From positions 1 through 40,848 of the IMG/VR virus record IMGVR_UViG_3300032325_000533: DNA of 40,848 nt. One strand, given 5' to 3'. This document shows positions 1 to 40,848 of the stretch, in pieces; positions within the stretch are counted from its first letter, which is position 1; every line of letters starts with the position of its first letter. Source of the DNA: a virus. The notes beneath the pieces are model-generated. The model made no database searches. It was not told the origin of the DNA and worked only from the letters and a program-made list of their open reading frames with translations. Both the position numbers and the translations under genes were made by a program.

Positions 1-123
1 GACCTGGCGGCAAACGCGCTTTACACGCGACCCGACCCGGAAAGGCTGGTGGAGACGCTGACGGCGCACCGGGCGCTGGTGGCGGGGCTTTCGGTTTCGG
101 AAGAAATCAAGGGCAAGCTGAAC
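1..123. repeat. Left copy of 123-bp terminal direct repeat
   Basis: Bases 1-123 are identical to 40726-40848. The reading frame of the virion gene continues across the join in phase: 40726 is a codon start, and so is 1. The simplest reading is an assembly overlap of a circular, or circularly permuted, genome. A true terminal redundancy of this size inside a coding region is less likely. Confidence 0.95.
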
Positions 124-6856: not shown

Positions 6857-8220
6857 CGGTTTCGACTTCGACGCGGCGGGTTGCTTATGCCGGGAACGGT
6901 GTGACGACTGTGTTTTCAGTGCCGTTTCCGTTTGCTGATCCGGCGGCGCTGCTGGTGGTGCTGACGGTGGCGGGGGTGGACGCGGTGCTGTCTCTGGCGG
7001 CTGATTACAATGTTTCGGGCGGCGCCGGCAGCGGAACGGTGACGATGGTGGCGGCGCCTCCGGTTGGCTCAACCTTGCTTATCAAGCGGGAGACGCCGCG
7101 CACGCAGAACGCCGACTATGTGCCGAACGACCCGTTCCCGGCGGAAAGCCACGAAGCCGCGCTGGACAAGCTGACGATGATTTCGCAGGAGACGGCCGAC
7201 GAGCTGGGGCGGGCTGTAATGGTGCGCGAGGCGGATCGGCCAATGGGCAATCTGCTGTTGCCGCCGCTTGCGGAAATGGCTGGCCAACTGGTGGGCTTTT
7301 CCAATGATCGGCGGCTTATTCCTGTCTCGCCGCTGGTGGGCAATCCGACCGATACGATCGCCATTGTGCATGAAAGCAAGCCGCTCGCTGACCTTTTGAA
7401 CAGTGATATTTCGCTTGACCCGGCTGAAATCGTGAGTGTGAGCGCAAATTCGATTTTGGACATTACTGCCATCAACCGGCTAGTGATGGTGTCTGGCGCG
7501 GCATCGGCCATTTCGCTCGCCATGCCGCCGGTCAACAGCTCGAACATTGGCGACGCTGTTTTCATCTTTGTGGCGCCGACTTTTCCGGGCCTGGTGACAT
7601 GCGCGGGCTTTCCTGCTTCCGGCCATTTGTTCGGCGGTCAGCCCAATCGCATCATGCACGCTGGCGAAAGCGCGCTCCTGCGCTTTGACGGCGCTGGATG
7701 GGTGAAGATCATGGGCGAAAGCCGGCCTTTTGCCGGGCAGATCGAGCAGGCGGCGCCGGTGGCGAGCAGCGGCACAACATGGGTGCGCATTCCATGCGCC
7801 ACCGTGGAAGCCGACCTTGAGCCTTCACAGCCCTGGTATGATGCAGTTAATTTCTGTGTTCGCCTGCCTCGGCCGACCATCTGGCGCTTCAATGTGCTGT
7901 TCTGGTTTGACAACATAACCATGGCGGCTCCCAATTATTCCGCGCCGGTGGGCACGGAACAGGGGGCGCCAGTGGATTTCGGCCTGGCAAATGTGATTGA
8001 TGCAAGCCCCTTGCCGAAAGAATTTAGGCGGACGCAGGTTCACTATAATCAACCGTTCGAGGCGGTTGATATGGTTTGGCAGGCGCGCATGCCGACGAGC
8101 TGGCGAGTGGGGCCGGTGTTTCGGTGCGGAAGCGCCGGCCTGACCAGTATTCGGGCGACGCATGGCGTAGGGCCAGAGCTGCGCACGCGGCTTTCTTTCG
8201 AGGAGGTGGTGGAATGGTAG
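6853..8220 (+). CDS. Tail fibre protein with T7-type N-terminal anchor domain
   Basis: Product of 455 aa. Residues 5-150 match the pattern of the T7 tail-fibre N-terminal domain (PF03906): YAGNGVTTVFSVPFPF near the start, ADYNVSG near 55, then IKRETPRTQ and NDPFPAESHEAALDKLTM. This domain attaches fibres to the tail in T7-type phages. The remaining 300 residues are a beta-rich region likely to form the shaft or receptor-binding tip. ATGA overlap couples it to the preceding virion gene. The next gene, an SGNH esterase, starts inside its last codons, which suggests that fibre and enzyme work together. Confidence 0.88.
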   Translation: MTVSTSTRRVAYAGNGVTTVFSVPFPFADPAALLVVLTVAGVDAVLSLAADYNVSGGAGSGTVTMVAAPPVGSTLLIKRETPRTQNADYVPNDPFPAESHEAALDKLTMISQETADELGRAVMVREADRPMGNLLLPPLAEMAGQLVGFSNDRRLIPVSPLVGNPTDTIAIVHESKPLADLLNSDISLDPAEIVSVSANSILDITAINRLVMVSGAASAISLAMPPVNSSNIGDAVFIFVAPTFPGLVTCAGFPASGHLFGGQPNRIMHAGESALLRFDGAGWVKIMGESRPFAGQIEQAAPVASSGTTWVRIPCATVEADLEPSQPWYDAVNFCVRLPRPTIWRFNVLFWFDNITMAAPNYSAPVGTEQGAPVDFGLANVIDASPLPKEFRRTQVHYNQPFEAVDMVWQARMPTSWRVGPVFRCGSAGLTSIRATHGVGPELRTRLSFEEVVEW

Positions 8221-11269: not shown

Positions 11270-11626
11270 TTATTGTTGGGGGTTTTCTTCGGGGGTGGTG
11301 GTGTTGGTGGGTGGGTGTGCCGTGGGGTGTGCCGTGTCAGGTTCGGGATGAAAGGTTAGCTTGGCCTCAATTCCCCCTCTGGCTCTTGCGTAATCGGCCA
11401 TCTCGGCGCGCTGCGTGTAAGTCCAGCGGCAGGACGAGACAAATGCAAAGGCAGTAACCGACAAGCCCAGCAACTGGTGCGGACTCTTGATGATACAAAA
11501 GCGGCAAGCCCATGCCGGGTGCAATAAAATGCCAGCGGTGGGGCTGGTAAATTCCACAGGGCCGTAATCGGCCGCGATGTCAACGCGGGCCTCATTCAGC
11601 CCGCTGGCAAAAAATACAAAGGTCAT
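11270..11626 (-). CDS. Hypothetical protein downstream of integrase
   Basis: Product of 118 aa starting MTFVFFASGLNEARVDIAAD. The ATG overlaps the integrase stop (ATGA), with AAGGA 6 nt upstream. It contains several Cys (CRFC) and a hydrophobic middle (LLGLSVTAFAFVSSC). The C-terminal 25 residues are Pro/Thr/His-rich (HTAHPTAHPP), because they are encoded by the right-hand arm repeats of attP. I do not recognise a family. Since the 3' end lies between the arm repeats and the core, its message passes through the attachment region. Confidence 0.6.
   Translation of the reverse strand: MTFVFFASGLNEARVDIAADYGPVEFTSPTAGILLHPAWACRFCIIKSPHQLLGLSVTAFAFVSSCRWTYTQRAEMADYARARGGIEAKLTFHPEPDTAHPTAHPPTNTTTPEENPQQ
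11316..11334 (+). promoter_or_regulatory. Right pair of integrase arm-type repeats (candidate)
   Basis: TGTGCCG at 11316-11322 and 11328-11334, the same 12-bp period and orientation as the left pair at 11086 and 11098. It lies 59 bp beyond the attachment core and inside the 3' end of the gene 11270-11626. Confidence 0.5.
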
Positions 11627-12708
11627 TGCTCATCCTTCTTCTGTGGTGCCGCGAAGGGGGTGGATTTTGCTACCGTGTCCCATGCGGTGGTTTGGTGCTC
11701 GGGGCTTATGTGGGCGTAGCGCATGGTCATCTGGATCGACTGGTGGCCCATTGCGTCTTTGATATCGCCAAGGTCAACGCCGGCTTTCCTGGCCCATGTG
11801 GCGAAGGTGTGGCGCAGATCGTGCCAGCGGAAATCTTGCAGGCCGCTGGCGGCGCGGGCGGCTTCCCAGCGGCGGCGCCAGTTGGGCTTGGCAAAGGCGA
11901 GGCCGCCAAGCTGGCGCGGTTGGCCCTGGGGGATGGCGGCAAGCGCGCTGGCGGCATGGCGGCGGAGCTGTTCGAGCGGGGCGCCGGAAAGGCGGGCCTG
12001 GAAGTTCTTGCCGCCCTTCACGATGACGCTGATCCGGCCGTCCACCAAGTCGATCCGCTCCCATGTGATTTGCCGCACATTCTCCCGGCGCAAGCCGGAG
12101 GCGCAGGCGATTGCCACCATGAGGCGCAGCTCGTCATCCGGGCAGGCGTCTATCAGCCGCTGATAATCGGCAAAGGTGAGGGCGCGGACGCGGCCGGGTG
12201 GCTCTTTCAGGCGCACCGCGCTCCACTTGATGCGGGGCACCGGCTGCTGGTGCACATCGGCGGCAAAGTTCATGGCGGCGCGCAGGATTGCCAGCTCACG
12301 GTTTATGCTGCTGTTCGCGCGCAGGCGGGCAACGGGCTTGCCGGCGGCATCGAGGCCGGGCTTGCCGATCCGGCGGGTGGCGACATAGCGCACCAGCATG
12401 GCGGCGGTGATATCGGCAACAAAGGTGTTGGGGCCGAGCGTGTCGGCAAGCGCCTGGAGGGGATAGAATAGCGTGGCGGCGCTGGGCTTGTGCTTGGCGT
12501 GCCCCTCCCAATAGGCGCCTAGCAAATGGCGGACGCGCCAGCGCTTCGGTTGCGCCTTCGCCTGGGTGGCGGCAAGGCGGGCCTGGCTTTCGATGATGCG
12601 GGCCTCCGCCTTATCCGCGGTGCCGGTGCTGCGGCGCTGGCGGGTGCCGCCGGCGGGGGTGATATCGAAATACCAGATGAGGCTGGGGGGGCGGCGGTAG
12701 AGGGTCAT
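11623..12708 (-). CDS. int: Tyrosine-type site-specific integrase
   Basis: Product of 361 aa. Residues 1-50 look like an arm-binding domain, about 60-160 like the core-binding SAM-like domain, and about 175-345 like the catalytic domain. Catalytic residues can be read as Arg207 (SGLRRENV), a Lys in VKGGKN near 231-234, His296 and Arg299 (WHDLRHTF), His322 (MGHQS) and the nucleophile Tyr331 (RYAHISPE). It catalyses attP x attB recombination at a tRNA-Thr gene. It is linked by ATGA overlaps to the genes before and after it, in a - strand operon under the promoter at 14358-14385. Confidence 0.95.
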   Translation of the reverse strand: MTLYRRPPSLIWYFDITPAGGTRQRRSTGTADKAEARIIESQARLAATQAKAQPKRWRVRHLLGAYWEGHAKHKPSAATLFYPLQALADTLGPNTFVADITAAMLVRYVATRRIGKPGLDAAGKPVARLRANSSINRELAILRAAMNFAADVHQQPVPRIKWSAVRLKEPPGRVRALTFADYQRLIDACPDDELRLMVAIACASGLRRENVRQITWERIDLVDGRISVIVKGGKNFQARLSGAPLEQLRRHAASALAAIPQGQPRQLGGLAFAKPNWRRRWEAARAASGLQDFRWHDLRHTFATWARKAGVDLGDIKDAMGHQSIQMTMRYAHISPEHQTTAWDTVAKSTPFAAPQKKDEQ

Positions 12709-12992
12709 TGTGGCGCCGCTGGCGCGTTCGCCAGTTCAAGCAGCGTGTCGCCGTGGCAGGGCTTATTCAGCGCGCACCAGCATGCAAGGTTCTTGCCGCG
12801 AAGCTCCTGCACCCTGTCCATGAAAAAGGCCTTGTCTGCATTCGACATGGTGGCGATCCACTGGTCAAAGTCGGCCTTGCTCGGGCCGGAATAGTTGCCC
12901 CAAGGGCCGGGCCGGGTGATGCTCACGGTGTTCTCCGGCATCCTCCAGCCTTTTGTGCGGCGGAGCTGGATGCGGATGGGGCGGTAGATCAC
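12705..12992 (-). CDS. DUF4326-type protein
   Basis: Product of 95 aa. It has the features I associate with DUF4326 (PF14216): QLRRTKGWRMPENTVSITRPGPWGN at the N-terminus and LRGKNLACWCALNKPCHGDTLLELAN at the C-terminus, with the CWC...CHGD cluster that probably binds metal. This family is common in phages and plasmids and has no settled function. It overlaps integrase and the upstream HTH gene by four bases each and so belongs to the same operon. Confidence 0.85.
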   Translation of the reverse strand: MIYRPIRIQLRRTKGWRMPENTVSITRPGPWGNYSGPSKADFDQWIATMSNADKAFFMDRVQELRGKNLACWCALNKPCHGDTLLELANAPAAPQ

Positions 12993-13291
12993 GCGGCGGC
13001 CTTTCTGCGGATGCTCTCGAAGTCGGGGACTTCGGGGTTTTGGATGGGACTAGGCCCCGGATCAAGTCCGGGGTGACGGTGGGGATTGGTGGCTTCTGTG
13101 TGGCCGCGAATTTCGGGCGCGGCTTGCTGCTTTGTGCCACCAATGGCCAGCTCTATGTCGGCCTGGTTGTAGCGGGTGCGGCCGGCGACGGTGTGGAAGG
13201 GGATTTCCCCGCGCGCCTTCATGCGGCGAAGGGTGCGCGGGGATATGGCGAGGGCCTGGCAAACGGCCTTGGGGGGGAGGAGCTGGATCAT
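12989..13291 (-). CDS. MerR/AlpA-type HTH protein, candidate excisionase
   Basis: Product of 100 aa. Residues 1-52 (LPPKAVCQALAISPRTLRRMKARGEIP then RTRYNQADIELAI) are a winged HTH_17-type domain as in excisionases and AlpA regulators. Position two genes before int in the same operon fits an Xis. The tail from residue 55 to 100 is disordered. It contains the peptide HPGLDPGPSP, encoded by a palindromic repeat of bacterial-chromosome type (13055-13073), so the tail seems to have grown by insertion of a repeat. Confidence 0.75.
   Translation of the reverse strand: MIQLLPPKAVCQALAISPRTLRRMKARGEIPFHTVAGRTRYNQADIELAIGGTKQQAAPEIRGHTEATNPHRHPGLDPGPSPIQNPEVPDFESIRRKAAA
13055..13073. repeat. Palindromic repeat element inside a coding region
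   Basis: CCCCGGA-TCAAG-TCCGGGG, a 7-bp perfect stem. The sequence CCCCGGACTTGATCCGGGG and the peptide HPGLDPG it encodes are familiar from dispersed palindromes of alphaproteobacterial chromosomes (recollection, not a search). Here it is in frame within the candidate excisionase gene. Confidence 0.7.
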
Positions 13292-14420: not shown

Positions 14421-14750
14421 TCATGCTGCCTTGCCTTTGAATTTGCAGAGGGTTTCGCCAACGGCCAGTATCTGATTCTGCATGTCTGTGGGGGCGTTGC
14501 GGTAAAGATCGAGGAGCTGGCGCTCCTGTTCGGTTTGTGGTGCGGTGGGATTGTCGCCGGGGTTCAGCAGCTCGCCGGGGGTGACGCCGAGCCAAGGGGC
14601 AAGCCGCTGCATCCAGATGATATCAAGCCTGGGCCTGCCGCGCTCAAGGCCGCTGATCTGCATTTTCGAGCAGCCGGCAAGGGTGGCCAGCTCCTCCTGC
14701 GACATATCCAGCGCAAGGCGTAATTCCTTGATGCGGTTCGGTGTTTTCAT
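14421..14750 (-). CDS. CI-like repressor, Xre/HTH_3 family, without peptidase domain
   Basis: Product of 109 aa from MKTPNRIKELRLAL. Residues 5-60 are a canonical HTH: LDMSQEELATLAGCSKMQISGLERGRPRL. The remainder is a short helical region that probably dimerises. There is no LexA-like S24 peptidase domain, so RecA-driven self-cleavage is not expected and induction must use another route. It is divergent from a Cro-like gene with three matching operators nearby. No Shine-Dalgarno precedes the ATG; a -10 TACAAT lies 8 nt before it, so the message is probably leaderless, as for lambda cI from PRM. Confidence 0.85.
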   Translation of the reverse strand: MKTPNRIKELRLALDMSQEELATLAGCSKMQISGLERGRPRLDIIWMQRLAPWLGVTPGELLNPGDNPTAPQTEQERQLLDLYRNAPTDMQNQILAVGETLCKFKGKAA

Positions 14751-14758
14751 GGCAGGGA

Positions 14759-14764
14759 ATTGTA
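14759..14764 (-). promoter_or_regulatory. -10 element of the repressor maintenance promoter
   Basis: On the - strand TACAAT is followed by 8 nt and then the repressor ATG at 14750. The -35 region is poor (CTAAAC or TAAACC), as for a promoter that needs activation. The hexamer is half of a 13-bp palindrome ATTGTAAAACAAT (14759-14771). A start 7-9 nt after the -10 would leave no leader or one of 1-2 nt. Confidence 0.5.
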
Positions 14765-14810
14765 AAACAATCGCTGACACGGGTTTAGCACCTTTTTCGC
14801 TGATAGGGGC

Positions 14811-14840
14811 TTGCCATATGGTAAGCGTTTTGATTACAAC
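14811..14840 (+). promoter_or_regulatory. Promoter of the Cro operon
   Basis: TTGCCA (14811-14816), an 18-bp spacer, then TACAAC (14835-14840), followed by 8 nt and the Cro ATG. Operator site 3 lies in the spacer. The distance from -10 to ATG is the same as for the divergent repressor, so this message may also be leaderless. Confidence 0.5.
14821..14837. promoter_or_regulatory. Repressor operator site 3
   Basis: GTAAGCGTTTTGATTAC, an imperfect 17-bp dyad. It lies between the -35 and -10 of the Cro promoter. Same consensus (GTAAGMGKTTYGMTTAC) as site 1 in the other repressed promoter. Confidence 0.65.
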
Positions 14841-14848
14841 AAGCCGCC

Positions 14849-15106
14849 ATGAGCCAATCGCCACCTTCACCGCTTCGCCGCTGGCGCCTGCAAGAACAGC
14901 TTTCGGTTGCCAATGCGGCGGCGCGGGTGCCGATTGCGCGGCAGACCTGGCATAGCTGGGAGCGCGGGCAGACGATCCCGCCCAAGCCGCTGATGCAGCG
15001 GCTGTTCGAGATGACCGGCGGGGCGGTCACGGCCAATGATTTCTATGATCTGCCGCAGCAGGATGCCGCGCCGGAAGTGCGCGGGCAGCAGGACATGGCG
15101 GCATGA
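14849..15106 (+). CDS. Cro-like HTH regulator
   Basis: Product of 85 aa starting MSQSPPSPLRRWRLQEQLSV. Residues 15-60 form an HTH of Cro/CI or YdaS type (SVANAAARVPIARQTWHSWERGQTIPPKPLMQRLFEMT). It is divergent from the repressor and heads the early operon. No ribosome site is visible before the ATG. The -10 TACAAC is 8 nt upstream, which predicts a leaderless message. The stop overlaps the next start. Confidence 0.8.
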   Translation: MSQSPPSPLRRWRLQEQLSVANAAARVPIARQTWHSWERGQTIPPKPLMQRLFEMTGGAVTANDFYDLPQQDAAPEVRGQQDMAA

Positions 15107-22074: not shown

Positions 22075-22920
22075 TTAGGCTGCCTTAAGCTGGCGCATAC
22101 CCTCGGCCAGCGTCCACAGGGCGCGGTTGACGCCGACATTCTGATCAATGCCGTTGATTGCCCTGGTGCTCTTGCGGGTGACGCGGCCGCGCTCGTCAAC
22201 GCGGCGGCCGGTCAAGCCTCCCCGAATGACATTTTCCTGCACCACGTTGAGAGTTTGCCAAAGGCTGCTGCCTGCATCGGCCGTGCGCCGGGGGCGCAAG
22301 AGCTGCTGCGCGGTCACTGGCGCGTCTGCATCCTCGCCATAGCGCGCTACAAGACTTGCATCGGCAAAAACCCGCTGTTCATCGCTGGACAAGGTCAGGG
22401 CCTTCATTTCCTGCACTTCATGGGTGAGGCGCGGGAACTCCTTTGCGATGCTGTAGGCGCCTTCGATGATTTCATGCTTGATGTTGCCCTTGTGGTGCAC
22501 GCGGACTTCATCAAATTGGCTGCCTGCTATCAGGCTGTTGGTGCAGACAAAGCGGATCAGTCCGGCGAACATTTGATAGCTGGTGCTGCCATCGTGCGAG
22601 TTGACCAGAATAATCTCGCTGGCTTCCCCTGCCCCGATATCGGCCTCGCGGCGAAGGCGTAGCATGTGCTTAGCGAACCCGAGCTTGCCAAGGTCGCGCG
22701 GCATGGCCTGCACGGCGAAAAAGGGCTGCCAGCCCTCCTGGCGCAAGCCGTCCAGAATGTTGATCGTGGGAACATACTCATAGCGCCGGCTGCGGCTATC
22801 GTGCGCCTCGCTGGCGAAGATCGCCGGGATTTGCGCGCGCAGCTGGTCATCCTGGATGGGGGTGCGGCTTCTGATTTCGAAAGCCTTGCGGGTGAAGCTG
22901 GTAGCAAGTTTGTGTGTCAT
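22075..22920 (-). CDS. DUF932 (phage/plasmid-like) protein
   Basis: Product of 281 aa. The features YVPTINILDGLRQEGWQPFF, LGKLGFAKHMLRLRR, EIILVNSHDGSTSYQMFAGLIRFVCTNSLI and HHKGN are those of DUF932 (PF06067), which is common on plasmids and phages and of unknown function. First gene of the - strand operon. AAAGG precedes the ATG by 7 nt. Its leader carries the inverted repeat 22991-23012, and its upstream region borders the mirror-symmetric GTTAC array, so that array may control it. Confidence 0.88.
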   Translation of the reverse strand: MTHKLATSFTRKAFEIRSRTPIQDDQLRAQIPAIFASEAHDSRSRRYEYVPTINILDGLRQEGWQPFFAVQAMPRDLGKLGFAKHMLRLRREADIGAGEASEIILVNSHDGSTSYQMFAGLIRFVCTNSLIAGSQFDEVRVHHKGNIKHEIIEGAYSIAKEFPRLTHEVQEMKALTLSSDEQRVFADASLVARYGEDADAPVTAQQLLRPRRTADAGSSLWQTLNVVQENVIRGGLTGRRVDERGRVTRKSTRAINGIDQNVGVNRALWTLAEGMRQLKAA

Positions 22921-23978: not shown

Positions 23979-24253
23979 CGCAGCGATTGCAAGGGCTTGG
24001 CTGGCCTTGCGCATATCATCGCTAACCATAAGCGCAAGCTGGCGCGGCAGCGCGGCGCGCTCGGGCGCGGCGCGGCGGGCGCGCGGCGCGGGGGGGGTGG
24101 CCCCCCCCACGGCCTCGCGCGCGTCCTGTATGCCCCTCGTCGCAGGGTGCGCAAAAATTCTGGCGAAAAATTGGCCGGAAAATCAGGCGACCGGGGAAAT
24201 GGGCCTGGGGATGGGAACGGGCCTTCGGGTTTCGGGTGCTGGGGTGCGGGCGC
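23979..24253 (+). other. terS-terL gap with two competing short ORFs and a G8/C8 hairpin
   Basis: Two + frames are open here: GTG 23971-24261 (96 aa, VNSAAIARAWLALRISS) and TTG 23997-24389 (GLAHIIANHKRKLARQRGAL). Neither has a convincing ribosome site, and neither has clearly better codon use. A run of eight G, TGG and eight C (24090-24108) crosses both and would be a slippage or sequencing-error site. A gene may exist here, possibly split by a frameshift. I do not choose. Confidence 0.4.
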
Positions 24254-25726
24254 GTGGCTGACGCGGGCACGCTCAAGCTGGAATGGGTGCCGCCTGGGCC
24301 GGTGGCGGGGGCTTTCGTGGAAAGCCGGGCGCCGATTGCGGCGATTGCCGGGCCGGTGGGTTCAGGCAAAACGACTGCCAGCCTTATGAAGATCGTGAAG
24401 GCAGCGCAGCGGCAAAGACCAAGCCCGCGCGACGGGGTGCGGCGGTGGAAGCATTTGACGATCCGCGACACCTTCACCGATTTGCAGCGCACCATTTTTC
24501 CAAGCTGGTTTGAGCTTTTCCCCAAGGATTTTGGCGAGTGGGTTGGCGGGCCTCCAGCCAAGCATGTGCTGCGCTTTGCCGACAAGTTTGGCCCTATCGA
24601 GCTGCAACATGACTTCATGGGGCTTGGCGACGACCGGATCGAGAATTTGCTGCGCGGCTATCAGGGCAGCAGCTTCTACGCCAACGAAGCCGACTTGCTG
24701 GAATATGGGGCCATTGACTTCATGTTTTCGCGGATGGGGCGGTTTCCGGGCGCGATTGACGGCGGCTGCGCCTGGCGCGGCGGCTGGATGGACTTCAACA
24801 TGCCGGAGCAGGATCATTGGCTCTACACGCTGCTGGTGGAAGGGATTATTCCCGACACCGAGCCGGAGCAGGTGGCAGAGGGTTTCCAATTTTTTGTGCA
24901 GCCGGGCGGGATGGATGCGAAAGCCGAGAACCGGCACAATCTTCCGCGCGATTACTATGAGCGGATGACCGGCACAATGCCCGACTGGCGGGCGCGGCGG
25001 CTGGTGCATAACCAGTGGGGCTATTCGCGGGACGGGAAGCCGGTTTATCCCGAGTTCAGGGATGGGGTGCATGTGTCTCCGGTGGCGCTGGAGCCGGCGC
25101 GGGGGTTGCCGGTGGGCATCGGGATGGACGCGGGTGGGACGCCGGCGGCGGCCTTTGGGCAGTTCATGCCGAGCGGGCAATTCCGGGTGCTGGACGAGAT
25201 TGTGACCGGGCCGGGAACCGGGCCGAAGGCCTTTTCCGACCTGCTGATGGCAAAGATCAGCGCGCGCTTTCGCGGCCATGACATTTTCGGCTGGGCCGAT
25301 CCTTCGGCGGCAATGGGGCCTGGCAATGACGGGACGGATAGCAACTGGCTGGAGACGGTGCGCATTCGCTCCAAAATTGCTTTTCGGCCTGCCCCTACAA
25401 ATTCGCCGGGGATGCGGCAGGAGGCCTTGCGGACGCCGCTTTCGCGGATGGTGGAAGGCGAGCCGGGCTTCCTGCTGGATCCGCGCTGCCGATCCTTACG
25501 CAAGGCCTTCAACAGCGGATATCACTACCGGCGCATTCAGTTGCATGGGGCCTCCGGGCGGTTCGATACCAAGCCGGCGAAAAATCAGTGGAGCCATGTG
25601 ATCGAGGCGCTGGAATATCTTGGGCTTGGCGGGCCGGGCGGGCTGGCGGTGGTGATGGGCCGGCCGGAACGGGCCGGGCCGGTGCAGGTGGTGGACGCCT
25701 ACGATATGTATGGCGACGCGGCATGA
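24254..25726 (+). CDS. terL: Terminase large subunit
   Basis: Product of 490 aa from GTG 24254; GTG 24236 is an alternative. The ATPase domain has Walker A AGPVGSGKTT (Lys39) and a Walker B-like strand SFYANEADLL, in which Asn replaces the usual Asp before Glu. The C-terminal RNase H-like nuclease has VGIGMDAGGTPAAAFG with the first Asp and IFGWADPSA with a second. It pumps DNA into the prohead and cuts it. The Walker B variant and the HDF and YQGSSFY phrases suggest a clade of podoviral prophage terminases rather than T7 gp19 proper. Confidence 0.9.
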   Translation: MADAGTLKLEWVPPGPVAGAFVESRAPIAAIAGPVGSGKTTASLMKIVKAAQRQRPSPRDGVRRWKHLTIRDTFTDLQRTIFPSWFELFPKDFGEWVGGPPAKHVLRFADKFGPIELQHDFMGLGDDRIENLLRGYQGSSFYANEADLLEYGAIDFMFSRMGRFPGAIDGGCAWRGGWMDFNMPEQDHWLYTLLVEGIIPDTEPEQVAEGFQFFVQPGGMDAKAENRHNLPRDYYERMTGTMPDWRARRLVHNQWGYSRDGKPVYPEFRDGVHVSPVALEPARGLPVGIGMDAGGTPAAAFGQFMPSGQFRVLDEIVTGPGTGPKAFSDLLMAKISARFRGHDIFGWADPSAAMGPGNDGTDSNWLETVRIRSKIAFRPAPTNSPGMRQEALRTPLSRMVEGEPGFLLDPRCRSLRKAFNSGYHYRRIQLHGASGRFDTKPAKNQWSHVIEALEYLGLGGPGGLAVVMGRPERAGPVQVVDAYDMYGDAA

Positions 25727-25739
25727 AAGGGTGTTGGTG

Positions 25740-26006
25740 ATGGCTCAACTTGGGGTTTTGTTGGCAAAGCCGGCCGTTGCTGGCCTTGCTGCGCTGATTG
25801 GCGCGGGTGGCTCTGTTGCAGCCGCCGCAGCAAACAAGCCTAAGCCGCTGGCGCCGCAGGCGGCGCCGGTGCGCGATGATGTGGAAGAAAATGCTTCCAT
25901 GCTTGAAAAGCTGCGCCGGCGCAAAGGGAGCGGCGCCAACGAGCTGCTGGGGCCTGGCGGGGCGGAAGCGGCGACACCGAAACCGACGATGCTGGGAGGC
26001 TCTTGA
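25740..26006 (+). CDS. Small virion-region protein (88 aa)
   Basis: MAQLGVLLAKPAVAGLAALI gives a hydrophobic N-terminal segment (residues 3-27). A Pro/Lys linker and a polar tail with KLRRRKGSGANELLG follow. GAAAGG lies 9 nt before this ATG; ATG 25710 would overlap TerL. Similar short proteins between terL and structural genes are frequent in podoviral genomes. The role is unknown. Confidence 0.6.
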   Translation: MAQLGVLLAKPAVAGLAALIGAGGSVAAAAANKPKPLAPQAAPVRDDVEENASMLEKLRRRKGSGANELLGPGGAEAATPKPTMLGGS

Positions 26007-26007
26007 C

Positions 26008-26349
26008 ATGGCGAAGCGCGCAACTGGCAAAAAGGCGAGTTTGGAGGCTGCTGGCGAGGTGGTGACGCTGCCGGAAATCCGCATTTTGAACGGCGACCGG
26101 CCGGTGGACGAGATTGGGCCTTATGCGCTCATGCCTGCTGATGTGCGGGACAGTGGCGGCGGGCTGCTGGTGCTGCCGGCGATCCTGCTGGAAGCGCCGG
26201 ATGGCGTTTATGGCGGGTGGATCAGTGGGGTTCGGCTTTCGATGGATGGCCGAGACTTCGATGCCGAGCTGACGGCACCGATTGCTGTTTCTCCGGGGAC
26301 GCGGGTGGAATTTGCGGCGCGGACGCTGCTTTTCAGAAAGGGATCGTGA
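26008..26349 (+). CDS. Hypothetical structural-region protein (113 aa)
   Basis: MAKRATGKKASLEAAGEVVT, with GGAGG 8 nt upstream. A basic start is followed by a beta-rich domain (LPEIRILNGDRPVDEIGPYALMPADV, GGLLVLPAILLEAPDGVYGGWISGVRLSMDG). Probably a particle component. The stop overlaps the next ATG (TGATG). Confidence 0.6.
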   Translation: MAKRATGKKASLEAAGEVVTLPEIRILNGDRPVDEIGPYALMPADVRDSGGGLLVLPAILLEAPDGVYGGWISGVRLSMDGRDFDAELTAPIAVSPGTRVEFAARTLLFRKGS

Positions 26350-26636
26350 TGGCGGACGCAGTTGAATGGGTGAACCGTTCAGGAACGGTAACGGCTGGCG
26401 GGGCGGCGCAGGATGTGATGGCTGCCTCGCAATATCGGCAGGGGCTAATGTTCCAGAACAAGAGCGCGGGCAATCTGTTTGTGCGGATCGGGGCGACGGC
26501 GAGCGCGACGGAGGGCTTTCAGGTGGCGGCGGGGGCCACTCTGGCTTTGCCGGCGGGTGCGCAGCCGAAGGGGCGGATTTCGGTGTTTGGCGCGACGACC
26601 GGGCAGGCATTCGAGGCCTATGAGTGGGGCCTTTGA
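26349..26636 (+). CDS. Hypothetical structural protein (95 aa)
   Basis: MADAVEWVNRSGTVTAGGAA, then GLMFQNKSAGNLFVRIGATASATEGFQVAAGATLALPAG, a small beta-sandwich pattern seen in phage particle proteins of unknown role. Directly before the fibre cassette. Confidence 0.6.
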   Translation: MADAVEWVNRSGTVTAGGAAQDVMAASQYRQGLMFQNKSAGNLFVRIGATASATEGFQVAAGATLALPAGAQPKGRISVFGATTGQAFEAYEWGL

Positions 26637-26663: not shown

Positions 26664-29000
26664 ATGGCGACGGCGAAACTGACATGGATTTTGGGCGCTT
26701 CGCGCGAGGCTATCGCGGTGGCCGGCGGAACCGCAATTTCCGGTGCGCCGGCGGTGGAAGTGAATGTTGATTTCGACGACAAAATGGGCAAGGCCGATGT
26801 GCTGCGGGGCCTCAATATGGTGCGGGACAAGCTGGTGACGCAGGGCTGGCCGCCTGTGGCGGCGGCTCCGGCGGTGGTCGAGGCTGAAATCACCGCAGTT
26901 GATGCCGATGGAAATTTTGTCACCTTGGCGGCGGCTCCGGCATCTGATGTGCCGCTGCTGCCGATTGTGGTGAAGCGGAACGGCTATAATTCGGCTGGAT
27001 CGCTGGAAGATTGGAACGAAACAATCCTGCTGACGCAGCGGAAGATTAACCCCGTGACTGTTGGCACACTGGCGGCTGGAACGGACATTGCAACAAGCTC
27101 TGTCATCTTCCAGGGCGATACCTTCACCAATCAACCGTCTGTGCCAAACGCTTCTACCCGCCTGCCCCCTCGCATCGAGGGGCGTTGGGTTGAGACATAT
27201 AGCGGCATTGTGGTCGGGAATACGGTTGCGGCGGCGGCGGATTTCATCACTTCCTATCCGGTCGATGGGCTGCCTGTGGAGCGGGTGGAATTTTACTGGT
27301 CAGACGGCACCGACACCGTCACGGCGGTGGGCGCGCTTTCTCCGTATATCGGGGTGGTGAGCGGCTACTGTGCGCACCGCTGGAGCGTGTCGGGCGTGGA
27401 CATTACCGCGCTCGACGAGGGGCGGGTGACGCTGGACTGGCGGGCTTATGGCCGATATGGCCAGCTTTACACTTCCGCCCAGGTTACGGCGGCGCTCAAT
27501 ATCAGCTCGCGCAACGGTGGTCACGATATAGGAACGCTGTATCTGCGGAAGCATGTGGCGATGGCCGCTGCCCCGGTGCATTTCTTTTTCTCCGCAACCG
27601 CCGGCAACAATGGGACTGGCGTGGCGAGCGAAGTGGTGGCGACGGCGCGGGCCAATCCTTTCGCCAATCACGGTCAAGGGCTTGTGGCGGCGGTGGCGCG
27701 CAATACGGCGCTCTATGGGGTGGCTGGTGCCGATGGCGTCGTGTGTGTCGCCCTCAACACGGGCGCAAACATTGCCCCCAATCGCAATGCCGCGACGGCC
27801 CAGCCCTGCCTCATCGCGGGTTGGACGATGATACCTGACCCGCTCGAAGTCTCATGGCCTGCTGGTGGCCCAACAATAGCCTTTGCCAGCAATGAAAACT
27901 GGTTTGTCGGCAGTTCCACCAATCCTGGTGGCGATGTGTCTCTGCACTGGCGCGGCTTCAATTACCTTCGCACGGCGAGCACCTTCACTTTCTCGAACAC
28001 TATCACGCACCCGGCTCGGATATACCTTGTCGGCGCGGCTGGTGGCTCGACATTCGATCTGGCGACGCTGGTGACTGGCACGCCCTTCATCAACGCGCCG
28101 TGGCATCCTGTTCGCTATACCTTTACCGGCGCGGCTGCTGGTTCAGGAACGGCGCTGAACTATAACACAAATGGCGGCATGGCGACCGCAATAGACTGCG
28201 ATTTCAGCGGAGTTGGCACTTCTGCGGCAAACGCTTCTGGCGTCTCTCCTTCTGGGCTGATTGCGTGCAAGGGCGGGAACCAATATCCGATTCCTTTGGC
28301 GGGATCGCTGCAAGCCGGGTTTATCGACGGCTGGACAAGCTATACTACTGGCGCGGCGGATATTGCTTTCTCCGTCCAGAACCACAATACGGCGCGCGCC
28401 TTCGTCAAGCGCAATGTGCTTTTCGTGGATTTGAACGGCACGGAAAACAACGGCACAGAGGTATCTTCGGACAACAAGACCTACAGTGTAACGGACATGG
28501 CGATGCTCGGCGTAACATTTGCCGCTGCCAGCCAAGCCTTCCGGTCTAATCACCTTTACACCGAAGGGGTTGCTGGCGGTTCGCGCCTTCATTTCGGCAA
28601 CACTATGCGGGGCTGCATCTTGCCCGCCATTGCCAACAAGGGCGCGGCCTTTGAAAATGACGCAGCGCGTGACCGGGGCTGTAGAGAGTATCGCTATGGT
28701 GTCGGTTGCATAGGCAATCACTATAACCACCTGTTCCGGGTGCCGAAAACCAGTGACACCGCCCTGATCTATCTTGGCGTCGGGGCGGACGCTCCGCCCA
28801 ACACGACAACCTATAACGACCCTCTTTTCGTGCTTGATCGCACGCCGACAGTGCTTGGCGGTGCAACCGGGGCGACTGATGGGAACTATCGATCGTCTGC
28901 GACCGTGGCACCTTACCCACGGCCCAATCGTTACGACATTCTTGGGCGCGTCCTTTCTTCGACCATCACAAAGGTCGGCGCTTATGCGGGTGAGCCATGA
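26664..29000 (+). CDS. Tailspike-type protein with a duplicated N-terminal module
   Basis: Product of 778 aa. GGGAGGG precedes the ATG by about 10 nt. Residues 1-65 are a paralogue of the 65-aa protein at 36328 (29 of 65 residues identical, no gaps), followed by a Pro/Ala linker. The remainder is beta-rich and Gly/Asn/Thr-rich, with repeats of short strands (AIDCDFSGVGTS, FVKRNVLFVDLNGTENNGTE, GSRLHFGNTMRGC) suggesting a right-handed beta-helix spike. No catalytic motif is assigned. Base composition and codons are more mixed and less G-ended than in neighbouring genes, which fits recent exchange. Probably a receptor-binding protein. Confidence 0.65.
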   Translation: MATAKLTWILGASREAIAVAGGTAISGAPAVEVNVDFDDKMGKADVLRGLNMVRDKLVTQGWPPVAAAPAVVEAEITAVDADGNFVTLAAAPASDVPLLPIVVKRNGYNSAGSLEDWNETILLTQRKINPVTVGTLAAGTDIATSSVIFQGDTFTNQPSVPNASTRLPPRIEGRWVETYSGIVVGNTVAAAADFITSYPVDGLPVERVEFYWSDGTDTVTAVGALSPYIGVVSGYCAHRWSVSGVDITALDEGRVTLDWRAYGRYGQLYTSAQVTAALNISSRNGGHDIGTLYLRKHVAMAAAPVHFFFSATAGNNGTGVASEVVATARANPFANHGQGLVAAVARNTALYGVAGADGVVCVALNTGANIAPNRNAATAQPCLIAGWTMIPDPLEVSWPAGGPTIAFASNENWFVGSSTNPGGDVSLHWRGFNYLRTASTFTFSNTITHPARIYLVGAAGGSTFDLATLVTGTPFINAPWHPVRYTFTGAAAGSGTALNYNTNGGMATAIDCDFSGVGTSAANASGVSPSGLIACKGGNQYPIPLAGSLQAGFIDGWTSYTTGAADIAFSVQNHNTARAFVKRNVLFVDLNGTENNGTEVSSDNKTYSVTDMAMLGVTFAAASQAFRSNHLYTEGVAGGSRLHFGNTMRGCILPAIANKGAAFENDAARDRGCREYRYGVGCIGNHYNHLFRVPKTSDTALIYLGVGADAPPNTTTYNDPLFVLDRTPTVLGGATGATDGNYRSSATVAPYPRPNRYDILGRVLSSTITKVGAYAGEP

Positions 29001-29031
29001 TGAACCTTTACCCATCCGATACGGGGGGAGC
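28997..29031 (+). repeat. 35-bp direct repeat, copy 1
   Basis: Begins ATGATGAACCTTTACCC and ends GGGGGGAGC. It overlaps the stop of the spike gene and forms the leader of the next gene. It differs from copy 2 at 31681-31715 by one base (T for C at the 23rd position). Confidence 0.9.
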
Positions 29032-29044
29032 CAGGAGCTTACGC

Positions 29045-31684
29045 ATGACGACCTACACGCACACCTTCCCGGATGGGGCGGTCATCACCTACACGCCGCC
29101 GGAGGCGGGCCCGCCGCCGCAGCAGTTCGCTCCGCTTCCGGCGGACTATCCCGCAGCAGTTGCAGTGCCGCCCCTCAACGAAACGGCAGGCAACTTGGGC
29201 TATCTTACCGGGCCGACTGAGGCGGAGTGCGCCAACATGTTTGGCGGGGCTTCTGTCGTGGAAGGTGCAATCGCTGTCAAAGTCAGGCTGCAACCCAGCT
29301 TTATGGGTGGGGACGGGAACAAGCCCGCGACCTACATCATGGGCCACGGAACTCCAGCGAGTCAAAATCGTGCTTGGTGTCTTTATTGGCTTGGCGGTGC
29401 TGCTGCAGCAGCAAACGCAGGACGCTTTCAGTGGCAGTATCAGCGGGGGACAGGTGACAACATAACGCCCCTTATGCCTCGCCGGATCGCGCCAAATGAG
29501 CAAGGCGTCGTTGAGGCGTTTCTGGTTTTCCGTCGCAAAGCTGATGCGGGTGGCACCTGGGAAGCACTGGCAATACAGCAGGGTGACACTGCAGTTGTCG
29601 CGCCGATCGGCGATGAAATAACTGTTGACAATGTTTTAGGTATTTCGAGTGCTTTGCAGGCGCCTCTGCGCCTGTTTACAGCCACCGCCGCAGCAGCCAA
29701 CGCTTTCAATTACGCCGGGGGCTGCGCACTCTCCGATTTGATTTACATTCAAGGCGCTGCTGGCACAGACGCAGAATGGCTGCGGGTCGCCAACGGTGAA
29801 AATCCAGCGACCGTATTTCCATCCACCCTGCACTACCATTACCCCTTAGGGGGGTCCGCCGGTCTTGCCAAAGCGGCAGGATCACGGGCAACTTCACCCT
29901 TCACTGTGCAAGGCTCAGGCGTCTATTATTCGACGCAGCTTCTCCCGACTGCTGGCACGACGACTGCGGCCAACAGCATCTATGTTCTTGGCAGCAACTG
30001 GGGGCATGTTCACCCGCTTCCGCCATCGGCGTTGATCGAGAACGAGGCGGCTGCAGGCGGCTTGGCGGGCATCATGACAAAGACGACGACCGTGCTTCTG
30101 CCGGTTTCCATCGGCGGCACGGCAACTCGCGTCGAAGCTCGTGTGTGCCGCGAAGATGACGGTGCGGTCATTCAAGACTGGACGCTGCGCGATGTGGAGG
30201 GCGGGACAGGCGCAGCGCTTACCGGTAATCACACGCTGATCATTCCTGGCGTTCGACCGGCTAACGGCCTCGGCCATGTTTATGATGTTCGCCGGCAGGA
30301 CGACCCGAGTTGCGTTTTCCGCTATCGCGCTCGGGAAGATGTCGGCATCGGCGCGGCTTGGGGGGCGTCACAGTCCCAAATGGCTCGTGTGATCTCCAAT
30401 GATGCTGGTGCAGCTGGCACCGGCCTGGTCACTCCGGTTGCAGGAGTTGGCGACACCGTCACCGTCACTTTGGAGCGGGCGGGAAAAAATGGCTTTGTGC
30501 CTCCGGCCAACGCACCGCTCAGGGCTGGTCTGACGACCAACGGGTTCATGGCCTTCGCCAACATGTGGCGCAGCAACTTCCCCACCCTTAAAGTGCATAT
30601 CACTGCACTGTCCAAGTCTGGCACCAGCACGCAGATGTGGCTGGAAGACAAGGTTAACGCGGTCACTCCCCTTAACTGGTGGGGCGATGGGGCCAATCCT
30701 GCAAGTGGGGTTGTGACGGCTCACACGCTCGCCGCCCGTCGCAGGTTCAGTGCCTTCTTGGTGTCGTGGCACACAGACGACCGTGGAAAAATCGACGGCT
30801 GGCAGGAGCGGTTCAACGAATTGTTCTCGCTGAACGAGGCTTCGGCCGGCGCGGCAGTGACAGGCTGGACTGTGCCCTACACTTCCAGAAAGAGCTTTGC
30901 CAAGTTTCCCGGGGGGCTGGTCTTTACACCCCATATCATTGGCTTCCCAGTGTCTCGTGAGTCGGAAGCTACAGGCGGGGTGGCAATGACTGCTTCTCGC
31001 AGCCGCACCTTCGCCGCTCAGCGAAAACAGCAGTTTGACTATTTCTCGAATGGGGTAGGCCGCGCCGCGGGCATCACCAGTTATGTTGCAAACTACCAGA
31101 CTGCAACGGAGATGCCTGTAGCCAGGGAGGCTCACCATACCAATGCAGCAGCGCGCGGAAATCCGCTCTTCTCTGTTCAGGTTGCGCAGGGCCTTGCTCG
31201 CGCAGCGGGCCTTACCCCCGGCTGGTATGTCGGCGCCGGCCGCGACTTGCCGAAGGTGTCTGGCGCGACTGGCGCTGGAACGCCCACCATCACCGTGTCT
31301 TTCGCTCTGCCTGCCGGTTGGACGCTGCGCACCCTGGATCCGGCAGCAACCGCCGTCGAAGAGTTCTGGGTGTCGCAAGACAACGGGGTGAATTGGGTGC
31401 GGGCGAACACGCTTGGAACGGTCACGATTGTTTCCGGGCAGGTGCGGCTCGCAAAGACTACCGGAAATTGGGCGGGCGTTGGCAACATGCTGATCCAGTA
31501 TAACGCCAGCGCCCCGGTTTCGACCGGCACTCTGGCGACTGACAATACGCAGCTTGGCCAGATGCTGTTTGCCGAAATGCCGGTGGGCGAGACTGTTCGG
31601 GCGCTTTGGCCTGCAGCAACAACGGAATTGGTGGATGGTCTGCCGATTGCGCCGGACATTGACCCTGTGGCGGTGCTGGTATGA
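29045..31684 (+). CDS. Large receptor-binding protein with SASA/SGNH-like C-terminal esterase features
   Basis: Product of 879 aa from ATG 29045 (AGGAG 7 nt upstream). ATG 28997 within the repeat would give 895 aa, MMNLYPSDTGGA. Residues 40-330 are beta-rich and probably bind the particle or a glycan. Residues about 430-730 resemble SGNH/sialate O-acetylesterase enzymes: WGASQSQM with Ser444 in the GQSNM place, VSWHTDDRG with His576, and AHHTNAAARGN with His697/698 in block V. This assignment is from motif memory only. The last 150 residues are again beta domains. The codon bias is more mixed than in the virion genes, as in the preceding spike. Confidence 0.6.
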   Translation: MTTYTHTFPDGAVITYTPPEAGPPPQQFAPLPADYPAAVAVPPLNETAGNLGYLTGPTEAECANMFGGASVVEGAIAVKVRLQPSFMGGDGNKPATYIMGHGTPASQNRAWCLYWLGGAAAAANAGRFQWQYQRGTGDNITPLMPRRIAPNEQGVVEAFLVFRRKADAGGTWEALAIQQGDTAVVAPIGDEITVDNVLGISSALQAPLRLFTATAAAANAFNYAGGCALSDLIYIQGAAGTDAEWLRVANGENPATVFPSTLHYHYPLGGSAGLAKAAGSRATSPFTVQGSGVYYSTQLLPTAGTTTAANSIYVLGSNWGHVHPLPPSALIENEAAAGGLAGIMTKTTTVLLPVSIGGTATRVEARVCREDDGAVIQDWTLRDVEGGTGAALTGNHTLIIPGVRPANGLGHVYDVRRQDDPSCVFRYRAREDVGIGAAWGASQSQMARVISNDAGAAGTGLVTPVAGVGDTVTVTLERAGKNGFVPPANAPLRAGLTTNGFMAFANMWRSNFPTLKVHITALSKSGTSTQMWLEDKVNAVTPLNWWGDGANPASGVVTAHTLAARRRFSAFLVSWHTDDRGKIDGWQERFNELFSLNEASAGAAVTGWTVPYTSRKSFAKFPGGLVFTPHIIGFPVSRESEATGGVAMTASRSRTFAAQRKQQFDYFSNGVGRAAGITSYVANYQTATEMPVAREAHHTNAAARGNPLFSVQVAQGLARAAGLTPGWYVGAGRDLPKVSGATGAGTPTITVSFALPAGWTLRTLDPAATAVEEFWVSQDNGVNWVRANTLGTVTIVSGQVRLAKTTGNWAGVGNMLIQYNASAPVSTGTLATDNTQLGQMLFAEMPVGETVRALWPAATTELVDGLPIAPDIDPVAVLV

Positions 31685-31715
31685 TGAACCTTTACCCATC
31701 CGACACGGGGGGAGC
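31681..31715 (+). repeat. 35-bp direct repeat, copy 2
   Basis: Same as 28997-29031 except for one base. It overlaps the stop of the second receptor-binding gene and leads into the portal gene. The copies are 2684 bp apart, exactly one fibre gene. Confidence 0.9.
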
Positions 31716-31728
31716 ATTTCAGCGATGA
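31681..31728 (+). CDS. 15-residue leader ORF coupled to portal
   Basis: MMNLYPSDTGGAFQR then TGA, whose bases overlap the portal ATG (ATGA). The first 12 residues are identical to the possible N-terminus of the preceding gene. It is either a translated coupling leader or the remnant of a fibre gene start left by recombination. Confidence 0.35.
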   Translation: MMNLYPSDTGGAFQR

Positions 31729-33365
31729 GGGATGCCGCGAAAGAAATTCTGTTCAATGAGGGCCGGCTTCGCGGGGAGCGCTCTAATTGGGATACGCAAT
31801 GGCAGCAGATTGCCGAGCGGTGCGCGCCTTCGCTGGCGAATTTCACTTCCGAGCTGACGCCTGGCGCCCGCAATACCAGCAAGATGCACGATAGCACGGC
31901 CTCTTTGGCGGCCACCAATTTCGCGGCCGCCATGGTGGGGATGACGGCACCGCGCCAGCAGCTTTGGCATGGGCTGCGCTCGGGGATCGACGAGCTGGAT
32001 CAACGGCCGGCGGTGAAGCGCTATTTCGAGATTTGGCAGCGGAAGCTGTTTTATCATCGCTATGCGCCGCTGGCGAATTTCGCCAACCAGTATCACGAAG
32101 TTCAACATTCGCTTGGGCTGTTTGGCCCTGGAGCGCTTTGGGTGGATGAGGATATCGGGCGGGGCATGGTCTATCGCTCGGTGCATATTGCTGAAATCGT
32201 GGGCGAGGAAGATCAGCATGGGCGGATGATGACGCTCTACCGGAAGTTCAAACTGTCTGCGACCAATGCACAAGAGCGCTGGGGCGAGGCGGCGCTGACG
32301 GCGCGGATGCGCAAGAGCATCGCGGACGGCAAGGGCCATGAGAAGTATGAGTTTGTGCATGCGCTGCGGCCGCGCCGGAAGCGGCAGCCGAATGCGCCGG
32401 GCTGGCGGAATATGCCGATCGAGAGCATTGTGGTGGGGGTGGCGGACGGGGTTATTATCACCGAGGGCGGCTATCGCTCCATGCCGCTGCTGTTCCCGCG
32501 CTATACCGCTTCGGCGCGGGAGCCTTATGGCCGTTCGCCGGCGATGCAGGCGCTGCCGGATATCAAGATGGTGAACCAGATGACGCGCGACCTGGTGAAC
32601 GCCAGCCAGCTCGCCATCAAGCCGCCAATGGTGATGCACGATGACGGGGTGCTTGGGCGCTTGCAGATGACGCCGGGGGCGCTGAACCGGGGCGGCCTTA
32701 GCATGGACGGGCGCATGCTGGTGCAGCCGCTGGCGACCGGCACCAATATCCCGATTGGGCGGGAGATTTTGAACGATAGCCGGGAGCTGATCAACAAGGC
32801 TTTCCTGGTGCCGCTGTTTTCGATCCTGACGGAAACGCCCGACCGCATGACGGCAACCGAAGTGTTGGAGCGCGCCAAGGAAAAGGGCGTGCTGCTGTCT
32901 CCTGCGGCGGGGCGGATCGAGGCCGAAGTTTTGGGGCCGATGATCGAGCGGGAAATGGATATTATCGAGCTGATGGGGCAGGCTCCACAGATCCCGCCAG
33001 AGTTGCAGGAAGCGAACGGCGAATATCGGATCACCTATGACAATCCGCTGACGCGGGCGGCAAAAAGCGAGCGCAGCATCGGCTTTCTGCGGACGGTGGA
33101 GGCGCTGGGGCCGATTGCGCAAGCCAATCCCGATGTGTGGGCTGAATTTGATCTTGGAGCGGCGGCGCGCGGGCTGGCCGAAGATAATGGAGTGCCGCCG
33201 AGCTGGATGCGCGACCCGGCCGAGCGCGAAGCCGAGAAGGCGGACAAGGCGATGCAGGAGCAAGCCGGCGCGCTGCTGCAAGGGGCCGGCATGGCCGGCG
33301 ATGCGGCGCTTTCGCTGGCGAAGGCGCAGCAAGTGGCGGCTGCACCTGGCGCTCCGGTGGTATGA
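31725..33365 (+). CDS. Portal (head-to-tail connector) protein
   Basis: Product of 546 aa. It begins MRDAAKEILFNEGRLRGERS and continues NWDTQWQQIAERCAPSLANF, HDSTASLAATNFAAAMVGMTAPRQQLWHGL, YRSMPLLFPRYTASAREPYGRSPAMQALPDIKMVNQ and ETPDRMTATEVLERAKEKG. This matches the T7 gp8-type connector family (PF12236). Size is right for the family (about 530-560 aa). Twelve copies form the channel at one head vertex. The ribosome site is the G-rich end of the 35-bp repeat, about 10 nt before the ATG. Composition returns here to that of the phage core. Confidence 0.92.
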   Translation: MRDAAKEILFNEGRLRGERSNWDTQWQQIAERCAPSLANFTSELTPGARNTSKMHDSTASLAATNFAAAMVGMTAPRQQLWHGLRSGIDELDQRPAVKRYFEIWQRKLFYHRYAPLANFANQYHEVQHSLGLFGPGALWVDEDIGRGMVYRSVHIAEIVGEEDQHGRMMTLYRKFKLSATNAQERWGEAALTARMRKSIADGKGHEKYEFVHALRPRRKRQPNAPGWRNMPIESIVVGVADGVIITEGGYRSMPLLFPRYTASAREPYGRSPAMQALPDIKMVNQMTRDLVNASQLAIKPPMVMHDDGVLGRLQMTPGALNRGGLSMDGRMLVQPLATGTNIPIGREILNDSRELINKAFLVPLFSILTETPDRMTATEVLERAKEKGVLLSPAAGRIEAEVLGPMIEREMDIIELMGQAPQIPPELQEANGEYRITYDNPLTRAAKSERSIGFLRTVEALGPIAQANPDVWAEFDLGAAARGLAEDNGVPPSWMRDPAEREAEKADKAMQEQAGALLQGAGMAGDAALSLAKAQQVAAAPGAPVV

Positions 33366-40249: not shown

Positions 40250-40848
40250 TGCCTAGAATACCGGGATATGAGCGGCAGGTTGACCCGAGGGTGGGCGCTT
40301 CTTTCGACGCGCCGCGCGTGGGGCCGGATGCTTTCGGCGCGCAAGTGGGGGATGTGCTGCAGGCCATCGGCGGGCGCATGCAGCAGGTTGACGAGCGCAA
40401 GCGGCGGGAGGCGGAAGCGGCGGCCGACGATGCGGCGGCGGTGGATGCGGCGCGGTTGTTCGAGGAGACGAACGCGGCGGCCGAGAAGGCGCGGGCGACG
40501 CTCAGGGAGCAGGCAAGCGGCGACGGCGCCGGCCATGCGGAGACGGTGCTTTCCGACTTTGACCGGCGGCGGGATGCGGCGCTGGAGGGGATTACCAACC
40601 CGAAGGCGCGGAAGTGGGCCGAGCTGCAATTCATTCGGCTGCGCGGCAACCTGGATGTGCAGGAAAGCGGCTATGCGGCCGGGCTGCGCGCCACCAAGAT
40701 CGTCACCGATTATTCGACTGCCCGCGACCTGGCGGCAAACGCGCTTTACACGCGACCCGACCCGGAAAGGCTGGTGGAGACGCTGACGGCGCACCGGGCG
40801 CTGGTGGCGGGGCTTTCGGTTTCGGAAGAAATCAAGGGCAAGCTGAAC
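40249..40848 (+). CDS. Internal virion protein, T7 gp15-like position (5' part, continues at base 1)
   Basis: The N-terminal part, MPRIPGYERQVDPRVGASFD, of the roughly 682-aa protein whose C-terminal part ends at 1572. The ATG overlaps the previous stop (TGATG). Residues 50-95 form a charged coiled coil (GRMQQVDERKRREAEAAADDAAAVDAARLFEETNAAAEKARATLRE). The phrase DFDRRRDAALEGITNPKARKWAELQFIRLRGNLD resembles the start of gp15-like and similar virion proteins. The window ends after residue 200, of which the last 41 repeat bases 1-123. Confidence 0.7.
   Translation, partial: MPRIPGYERQVDPRVGASFDAPRVGPDAFGAQVGDVLQAIGGRMQQVDERKRREAEAAADDAAAVDAARLFEETNAAAEKARATLREQASGDGAGHAETVLSDFDRRRDAALEGITNPKARKWAELQFIRLRGNLDVQESGYAAGLRATKIVTDYSTARDLAANALYTRPDPERLVETLTAHRALVAGLSVSEEIKGKLN
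40726..40848. repeat. Right copy of 123-bp terminal direct repeat
   Basis: Identical to bases 1-123. See the left copy. The nonredundant circle is 40,725 bp. Confidence 0.95.

What the first reader, a model, noticed from the sequence alone, without database searches (positions are those of the whole stretch)
28997..31715. Fibre gene exactly bracketed by 35-bp direct repeats: an excisable receptor-binding cassette
Copies at 28997-29031 and 31681-31715 differ at one base and are one gene length (2684 bp) apart. Both overlap the TGA of the gene before them. Recombination between them would remove the 879-aa protein cleanly and leave the spike gene joined to the portal leader with every start/stop overlap kept. 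The same geometry would allow insertion or swapping of fibre genes.
Basis: partly seen in the sequence, partly recalled or inferred. Interest (0 to 1): 0.75.

Follow-up and report, generated by a model that had tools for sequence, protein, structure and literature searches.

The report
Repeat-bracketed tail gene in a phage
In a bacterial virus genome, one long gene for a probable tail (host-attachment) protein sits exactly between two nearly identical 35-base repeats, most likely the scar left when that gene was added by recombination; other phages show the same kind of scar, and nothing shows that the gene is being switched in and out today.

Summary
The 35-bp copies at 28997-29031 and 31681-31715 (34/35 identical, 2684 bp apart) are far beyond chance and are the only copies in the genome. 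Each supplies the stop codon of the gene before it (ATGA overlap) and opens the next frame. Copy 1 runs in frame into the 879-aa gene. Copy 2 is a 15-codon ORF whose stop overlaps the portal start. Homology stops sharply at both edges. In silico, recombination between the copies gives the clean deletion described.

The bracketed gene has the most foreign codon usage among the rightward genes tested. Relatives carry none or different virion/fibre-type genes at this TerL-portal spot. Two other contigs of the same portal family hold segments bracketed by gene-boundary repeats, and relatives have one copy and no insert (L103/L102; L090/L094, L095). Published mycobacteriophages show the same pattern (LRRHood/Cali, Island3/Brujita). 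So gene gain through boundary homology is the best reading.

Not shown: excision, swapping, or receptor binding. The repeat occurs nowhere else searched, no close relative shows the empty site, and no recombinase or inverted-repeat site was found at the repeats. Verdict: real, a new member of a known kind of phage mosaicism, modest interest.

The parts
28997..29031 (+). Repeat copy 1: provides the TGA of the upstream gene (28998-29000) and ATGATG opening the next frame (MMNLYPSDTGGA..., in frame with the 879-aa gene)
31681..31715 (+). Repeat copy 2 (34/35): provides the TGA of the 879-aa gene (31682-31684) and opens a 15-codon ORF
31681..31728 (+). Mini-ORF MMNLYPSDTGGAFQR*, ATGA-overlapped with the gene before and with the portal gene after it; probably a truncated copy of the cassette gene's 5' end
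   Evidence: translation inferred only
29045..31684 (+). Bracketed gene, 879 aa (895 aa if started at 28997); probable tail/receptor-binding protein; ~30% identical to 'carbohydrate esterase' proteins of Microcystis phages; codon usage z = 15.7
26664..29000 (+).
31725..33365 (+). Portal (head-tail connector), PF12236, 546 aa; its ATG overlaps the mini-ORF stop
24236..25726 (+). Terminase large subunit
25740..26006 (+). Small gene ending ...TMLGGS, resembling by eye the small gene ending ..LLGA/LLGQ that directly precedes the portal in many relatives; here 5.7 kb away from the portal
   Evidence: one weak tblastn match, L075, E 0.001
26008..26636 (+). Two small genes (26008-26349, 26349-26636) at the start of the insert between the small gene and the portal
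   Evidence: phrog_22789 for the second

Best explanation
The repeat is a gene-boundary 'hinge' (stop codon of the gene before, start codon of the gene after) that was duplicated when the 879-aa tail-type gene was gained between the upstream 778-aa gene and the portal gene. The likely event is recombination at the boundary with another phage or prophage, by homologous or illegitimate exchange. Shown: the geometry, the sharp homology edges, the foreign composition of the gene, the variable content of this spot in relatives, and two repeat-bracketed inserts with single-copy relatives in the same portal family. Inferred: the direction (gain rather than pending loss), and that the upstream frame, the cassette gene, the mini-ORF and the portal gene are translationally coupled through ATGA overlaps, so that insertion costs little. 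General or phage recombination could still delete the gene cleanly through the 35 bp at a low rate; that is a passive consequence, not a dedicated switch.
For: Sharp 35-bp identity with no flanking homology. Codon usage of the bracketed gene is the most deviant of the rightward genes (z 15.7; upstream gene 9.2; others at most 4.4). In relatives TerL, small gene(s) and portal are usually adjacent, but L039 and L049 have phrog_1645 virion structural genes there and L104/L066/L068 have three-domain laminin-G-type lectin genes. L103 has a 63/66 repeat bracketing a 152-aa gene behind the portal, while L102 (94% identical DNA) goes straight from portal to the next gene with one copy; as here, one L103 copy is a truncated gene start whose stop overlaps the next ATG. 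L090 has a bracketed ~220-bp segment where L094/L095 have one copy. Published: LRRHood 1.35 kb between 29-bp direct repeats, single copy in Cali; Island3 gene 68, ~50 bp (PMC3029335).
Against: No relative with the empty or single-copy site of this very repeat was found, so direction cannot be proved; the portal relatives are at most 43% identical. Codon bias may partly reflect the fibre-like composition of such proteins rather than foreign origin. The upstream 778-aa gene is also atypical but not repeat-bracketed, so gain of that region involved more than this repeat.
Confidence: 0.66

Rival explanations
1. Excisable or swappable receptor-binding cassette: recombination between the repeats deletes the gene, or exchanges it for others, often enough to create variants with different host range.
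For: Geometry allows clean deletion with all overlaps kept; 35 bp lies around the minimal length for RecA-type recombination (general knowledge); relatives have none or different genes at the spot.
Against: No variant between the same repeat found; repeat absent from the other records searched; no recombinase, invertase or inverted-repeat site next to the repeats; the only integrase/excisionase genes are 16-20 kb away.
Confidence: 0.12
2. Functional translation or expression leader: the 35-bp element is kept in two copies because it acts as a start-associated or coupling element, comparable to start-associated sequences of Cluster K mycobacteriophages.
For: Both copies lie in front of gene starts, include GGGGGAG before the start, and keep the same frame; the one difference is synonymous.
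Against: Only two copies, both around one gene, whereas such elements recur before many genes (PMC3203893); other genes of this genome use ATGA overlaps without it; no unusual RNA fold (z -0.22 for the repeat alone); no promoter or terminator match at either copy.
Confidence: 0.12
3. Collapsed tandem array: two tail genes once shared the same 5' end, the second was deleted, and copy 2 (MMNLYPSDTGGAFQR*) is its remnant.
For: Copy 1 is in frame with the tail-type gene, copy 2 is a truncated start; tail genes often share N-termini (general knowledge).
Against: No second tail gene with this N-terminus seen anywhere; shared part is only 12 codons, shorter than known anchor domains.
Confidence: 0.08
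4. Assembly artefact or chance repeat.
For: The record is a metagenomic virus contig.
Against: Chance excluded by simulation; 35 bp is shorter than ordinary reads; frames are open on both sides.
Confidence: 0.02

Closest known systems
Mycobacteriophage LRRHood genes 43-46 versus Cali (PMC3029335)
   Same: A gene segment bracketed by short direct repeats (29 bp) at gene ends; interpreted as acquisition through, or loss by, recombination at the repeat
   Different: There the single-copy relatives are known and four genes including a repressor are involved; here one large tail-type gene and no single-copy relative
Mycobacteriophage Island3 gene 68 versus Brujita (PMC3029335)
   Same: One extra gene with ~50-bp repeated gene-boundary sequence; general recombination proposed
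   Different: Small gene of unknown function; repeat lies at the 3' ends of coding regions
Conserved boundary sequences proposed for phage mosaicism (as cited in PMC3029335)
   Same: Short homology at gene boundaries that lets genes be joined or exchanged
   Different: Boundary sequences are shared between phages; this repeat was found in no other record searched
Start-associated sequences (SAS/ESAS) of Cluster K mycobacteriophages (PMC3203893)
   Same: Repeated sequence immediately before gene starts
   Different: 13-bp consensus in many copies per genome and shared by relatives; here 35 bp, two copies, around one gene

Membership tests
Repeat-bracketed gene gain/loss at phage gene boundaries (LRRHood/Island3 type) | Segment bracketed by near-identical direct repeats at gene ends, no homology beyond | tested here: met
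Repeat-bracketed gene gain/loss at phage gene boundaries (LRRHood/Island3 type) | Related genome with a single repeat copy and no segment | tested here: inconclusive
   No close relative of this locus in phages, viral contigs or genome-contig searches; shown for other loci of the same portal family
Start-associated sequences (SAS-like leader) | Many copies before unrelated genes | tested here: not met
   Two copies only
Site-specific or phase-variable tail cassette | Recombinase gene beside the cassette and inverted or recombinase-type sites | tested here: not met
   No recombinase match among neighbouring genes; direct repeats without notable internal symmetry; integrase is at 11623-12708
Site-specific or phase-variable tail cassette | Both states present in a population | not testable with these tools
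   No reads available
Receptor-binding protein / carbohydrate esterase | Homology to characterised esterases or tail proteins | tested here: inconclusive
   ~30% identity to genes annotated 'carbohydrate esterase'; no Pfam, PHROGs or PDB match; structure model too poor to use (mean pLDDT 30)
PF12236 head-tail connector phages (BcepC6B/BPP-1-like) | Portal of PF12236 | tested here: met
   E = 8.8e-108

The most novel reading that the evidence does not exclude
The 35-bp stop/start hinge is a reusable docking site: any gene ending in frame with its TGA and beginning after it can be added between the TerL region and the portal, so this phage lineage carries zero, one or more attachment genes that are gained, lost and exchanged through the hinge on short time scales, giving population-level host-range variation without a dedicated recombinase.
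Probability: 0.1. Interest if true: 0.6.

Novelty: new member of a known kind. Interest (0 to 1): 0.3.

Why it matters
It gives a clear anatomical picture of how a large tail-type gene can be added to a packed phage operon without breaking its translation: the repeat itself carries the stop and start codons. Together with L103/L102 and L090/L094/L095 it suggests that boundary-repeat insertion is a recurrent route in this portal family. If variants were found, it would be a simple, recombinase-free way to vary host attachment.

Tried and rejected
Chance or low-complexity repeat: rejected by simulation. Promoter, terminator or RNA-structure element: no promoter/terminator match at the repeats, fold no better than shuffles. 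More copies of the repeat elsewhere: none in the genome and none in viral contigs beyond two stray matches to a looser degenerate pattern, not followed up; only E > 1 matches in phages and plasmids. Close relatives: none by protein or DNA. Prophage search in host genomes by taxonomic centre: not possible, because only two distant genomes gave handles. Function of the 879-aa protein by PDB profile, Pfam and PHROGs: no match; single-sequence AlphaFold model useless, so no fold search was run. A GxSQ-type esterase motif in the alignment with the Microcystis phage protein is only suggestive and is not relied on.

Full report
OBSERVATION. The repeat is real and exactly where reported: 28997-29031 and 31681-31715, 34 of 35 bases identical, 2684 bp apart. 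No further copy exists on either strand of the genome. The longest exact repeat of the non-redundant genome is 23 bp, longer than in any of 200 Markov simulations (maxima 19 and 22), and sequence beyond the repeat edges is not more alike than shuffled sequence. Thus homology begins and ends sharply at the 35 bp.

ANATOMY. The repeat starts ATGATGA. Its TGA at offset 2 is the stop codon of the 778-aa gene (copy 1) and of the 879-aa gene (copy 2). Its ATG opens another frame: after copy 1 this frame runs into the 879-aa gene (895 aa if translated from 28997; an internal ATG at 29045 follows AGGAG and may be the true start). After copy 2 it is a 15-codon ORF, MMNLYPSDTGGAFQR*, whose TGA overlaps the ATG of the portal gene at 31725. 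The chain is 778-aa gene / ATGA / 879-aa gene / ATGA / mini-ORF / ATGA / portal. ATGA overlaps occur at several other gene boundaries of this genome without the repeat, so the overlap itself is ordinary here; the 35-bp identity is not.

CONTEXT. The record is a 40,848-base virus contig with a 123-bp end repeat. It encodes TerL, portal (PF12236), a phrog_3437 major head protein, tail proteins, a T7-type tail fibre N-terminus at 6853-8220, endolysin, integrase, excisionase and repressor-like genes: a temperate podovirus-like phage of the BcepC6B/BPP-1 portal type. Its portal is at most 43% identical to any relative found.

THE SPOT IN RELATIVES. In most relatives TerL, one or two small genes and the portal follow each other directly. 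In the window the small gene that looks like the usual portal neighbour (25740-26006, ending TMLGGS) is separated from the portal by 5.7 kb holding two small genes, the 778-aa gene and the 879-aa gene. Some relatives also carry extra genes here: phrog_1645 virion structural proteins in L039 and L049, and 667-679-aa proteins with three laminin-G-type lectin domains in L104, L066 and L068.

THE GENE. The 879-aa protein has no Pfam, PHROGs or PDB match. Its only relatives are proteins of two Microcystis phages annotated 'carbohydrate esterase', 29-30% identical, one of them next to a tail-fibre gene. A role in host attachment is likely but unproved. The single-sequence structure model is unusable. 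Its codon usage is the most deviant of the tested rightward genes (z 15.7; 778-aa gene 9.2; the rest at most 4.4), with low third-position G+C and no G skew, consistent with later arrival, although fibre-like proteins may differ in composition for other reasons. Leftward genes also deviate (z up to 13.2) through strand skew.

THE SAME GEOMETRY ELSEWHERE. Scanning 1.18 Mb of relatives and the window for direct repeats gave a handful of repeats bracketing segments at gene boundaries. Two can be tested against an empty relative. L103 has a 63/66 repeat bracketing a 152-aa gene behind the portal. L102, 94% identical up to the portal end, continues within a few bases at the start of the downstream gene and has one copy. 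In L103 the first copy is a truncated start of that downstream gene whose stop overlaps the next ATG, the counterpart of the mini-ORF here. L090 carries a ~220-bp segment bracketed by a repeat of the portal gene's 3' end where L094 and L095 have one copy. So in this portal family, short segments do come and go with duplication of gene-boundary sequence. Functions of those inserts are unknown.

LITERATURE. The same picture is published for mycobacteriophages: LRRHood has 1.35 kb between 29-bp direct repeats present once in Cali, and Island3 gene 68 is associated with ~50-bp repeats relative to Brujita. The authors propose recombination at the repeats; for Island3 they leave the direction open, and for LRRHood they favour acquisition (PMC3029335). 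Start-associated sequences (PMC3203893) are a different thing, short and many-copied, and are not matched here.

MECHANISM. Best supported: the 879-aa gene was gained by recombination at the gene boundary, duplicating the stop/start hinge; the operon stays translatable because the hinge supplies stop and start. Passive loss by general recombination through 35 bp is possible (general knowledge) but not shown. I found no recombinase gene or inverted-repeat site at the repeats that would suggest a programmed switch. The repeat sequence was found in no other record searched, so there is no evidence that other genes use it.

LIMITS. No reads, no close relative, and host unknown. Direction of the event, activity today, and the role of the protein remain inferred.

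Noticed in passing
window 1-123 and 40726-40848: Identical 123-bp ends lying inside coding sequence; the contig is probably a closed circle or circularly permuted genome with a redundant end.
   Followed up: no
window 11623-12708 (-), 12989-13291 (-), 14421-14870 (-): Tyrosine integrase, excisionase-like and repressor-like genes: the phage is probably temperate, yet no close prophage was found in the species genomes searched.
   Followed up: partly
L103 2270-2335 and 2777-2842; L102 7536-7583: 63/66 direct repeat bracketing a 152-aa gene behind the portal, with a 94% identical relative that has one copy and no gene; a natural occupied/empty pair.
   Followed up: yes
L090 10564-10589 and 10787-10812; L095 about 2137-2182: Duplicated portal 3' end bracketing a short insert, single copy in L094 and L095.
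   Followed up: yes
L104 615-2618, L066 2075-4090, L068 5582-7621: 667-679-aa proteins with three laminin-G-like lectin domains upstream of the portal in relatives, an unusual place for attachment-type genes.
   Followed up: partly
L106 977-1058 and 1480-1561: 81/82 direct repeat bracketing a leftward 132-aa gene far upstream of the portal; function unknown.
   Followed up: no
window 6853-8220: T7-type tail fibre N-terminal domain in a separate gene of the tail cluster, so the bracketed gene is not the only candidate attachment protein.
   Followed up: no
window 22075-22920 (-): DUF932 gene whose listed phage relatives are mostly in very large phages (about 350 kb) of enterobacteria and Xanthomonas.
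   Followed up: no
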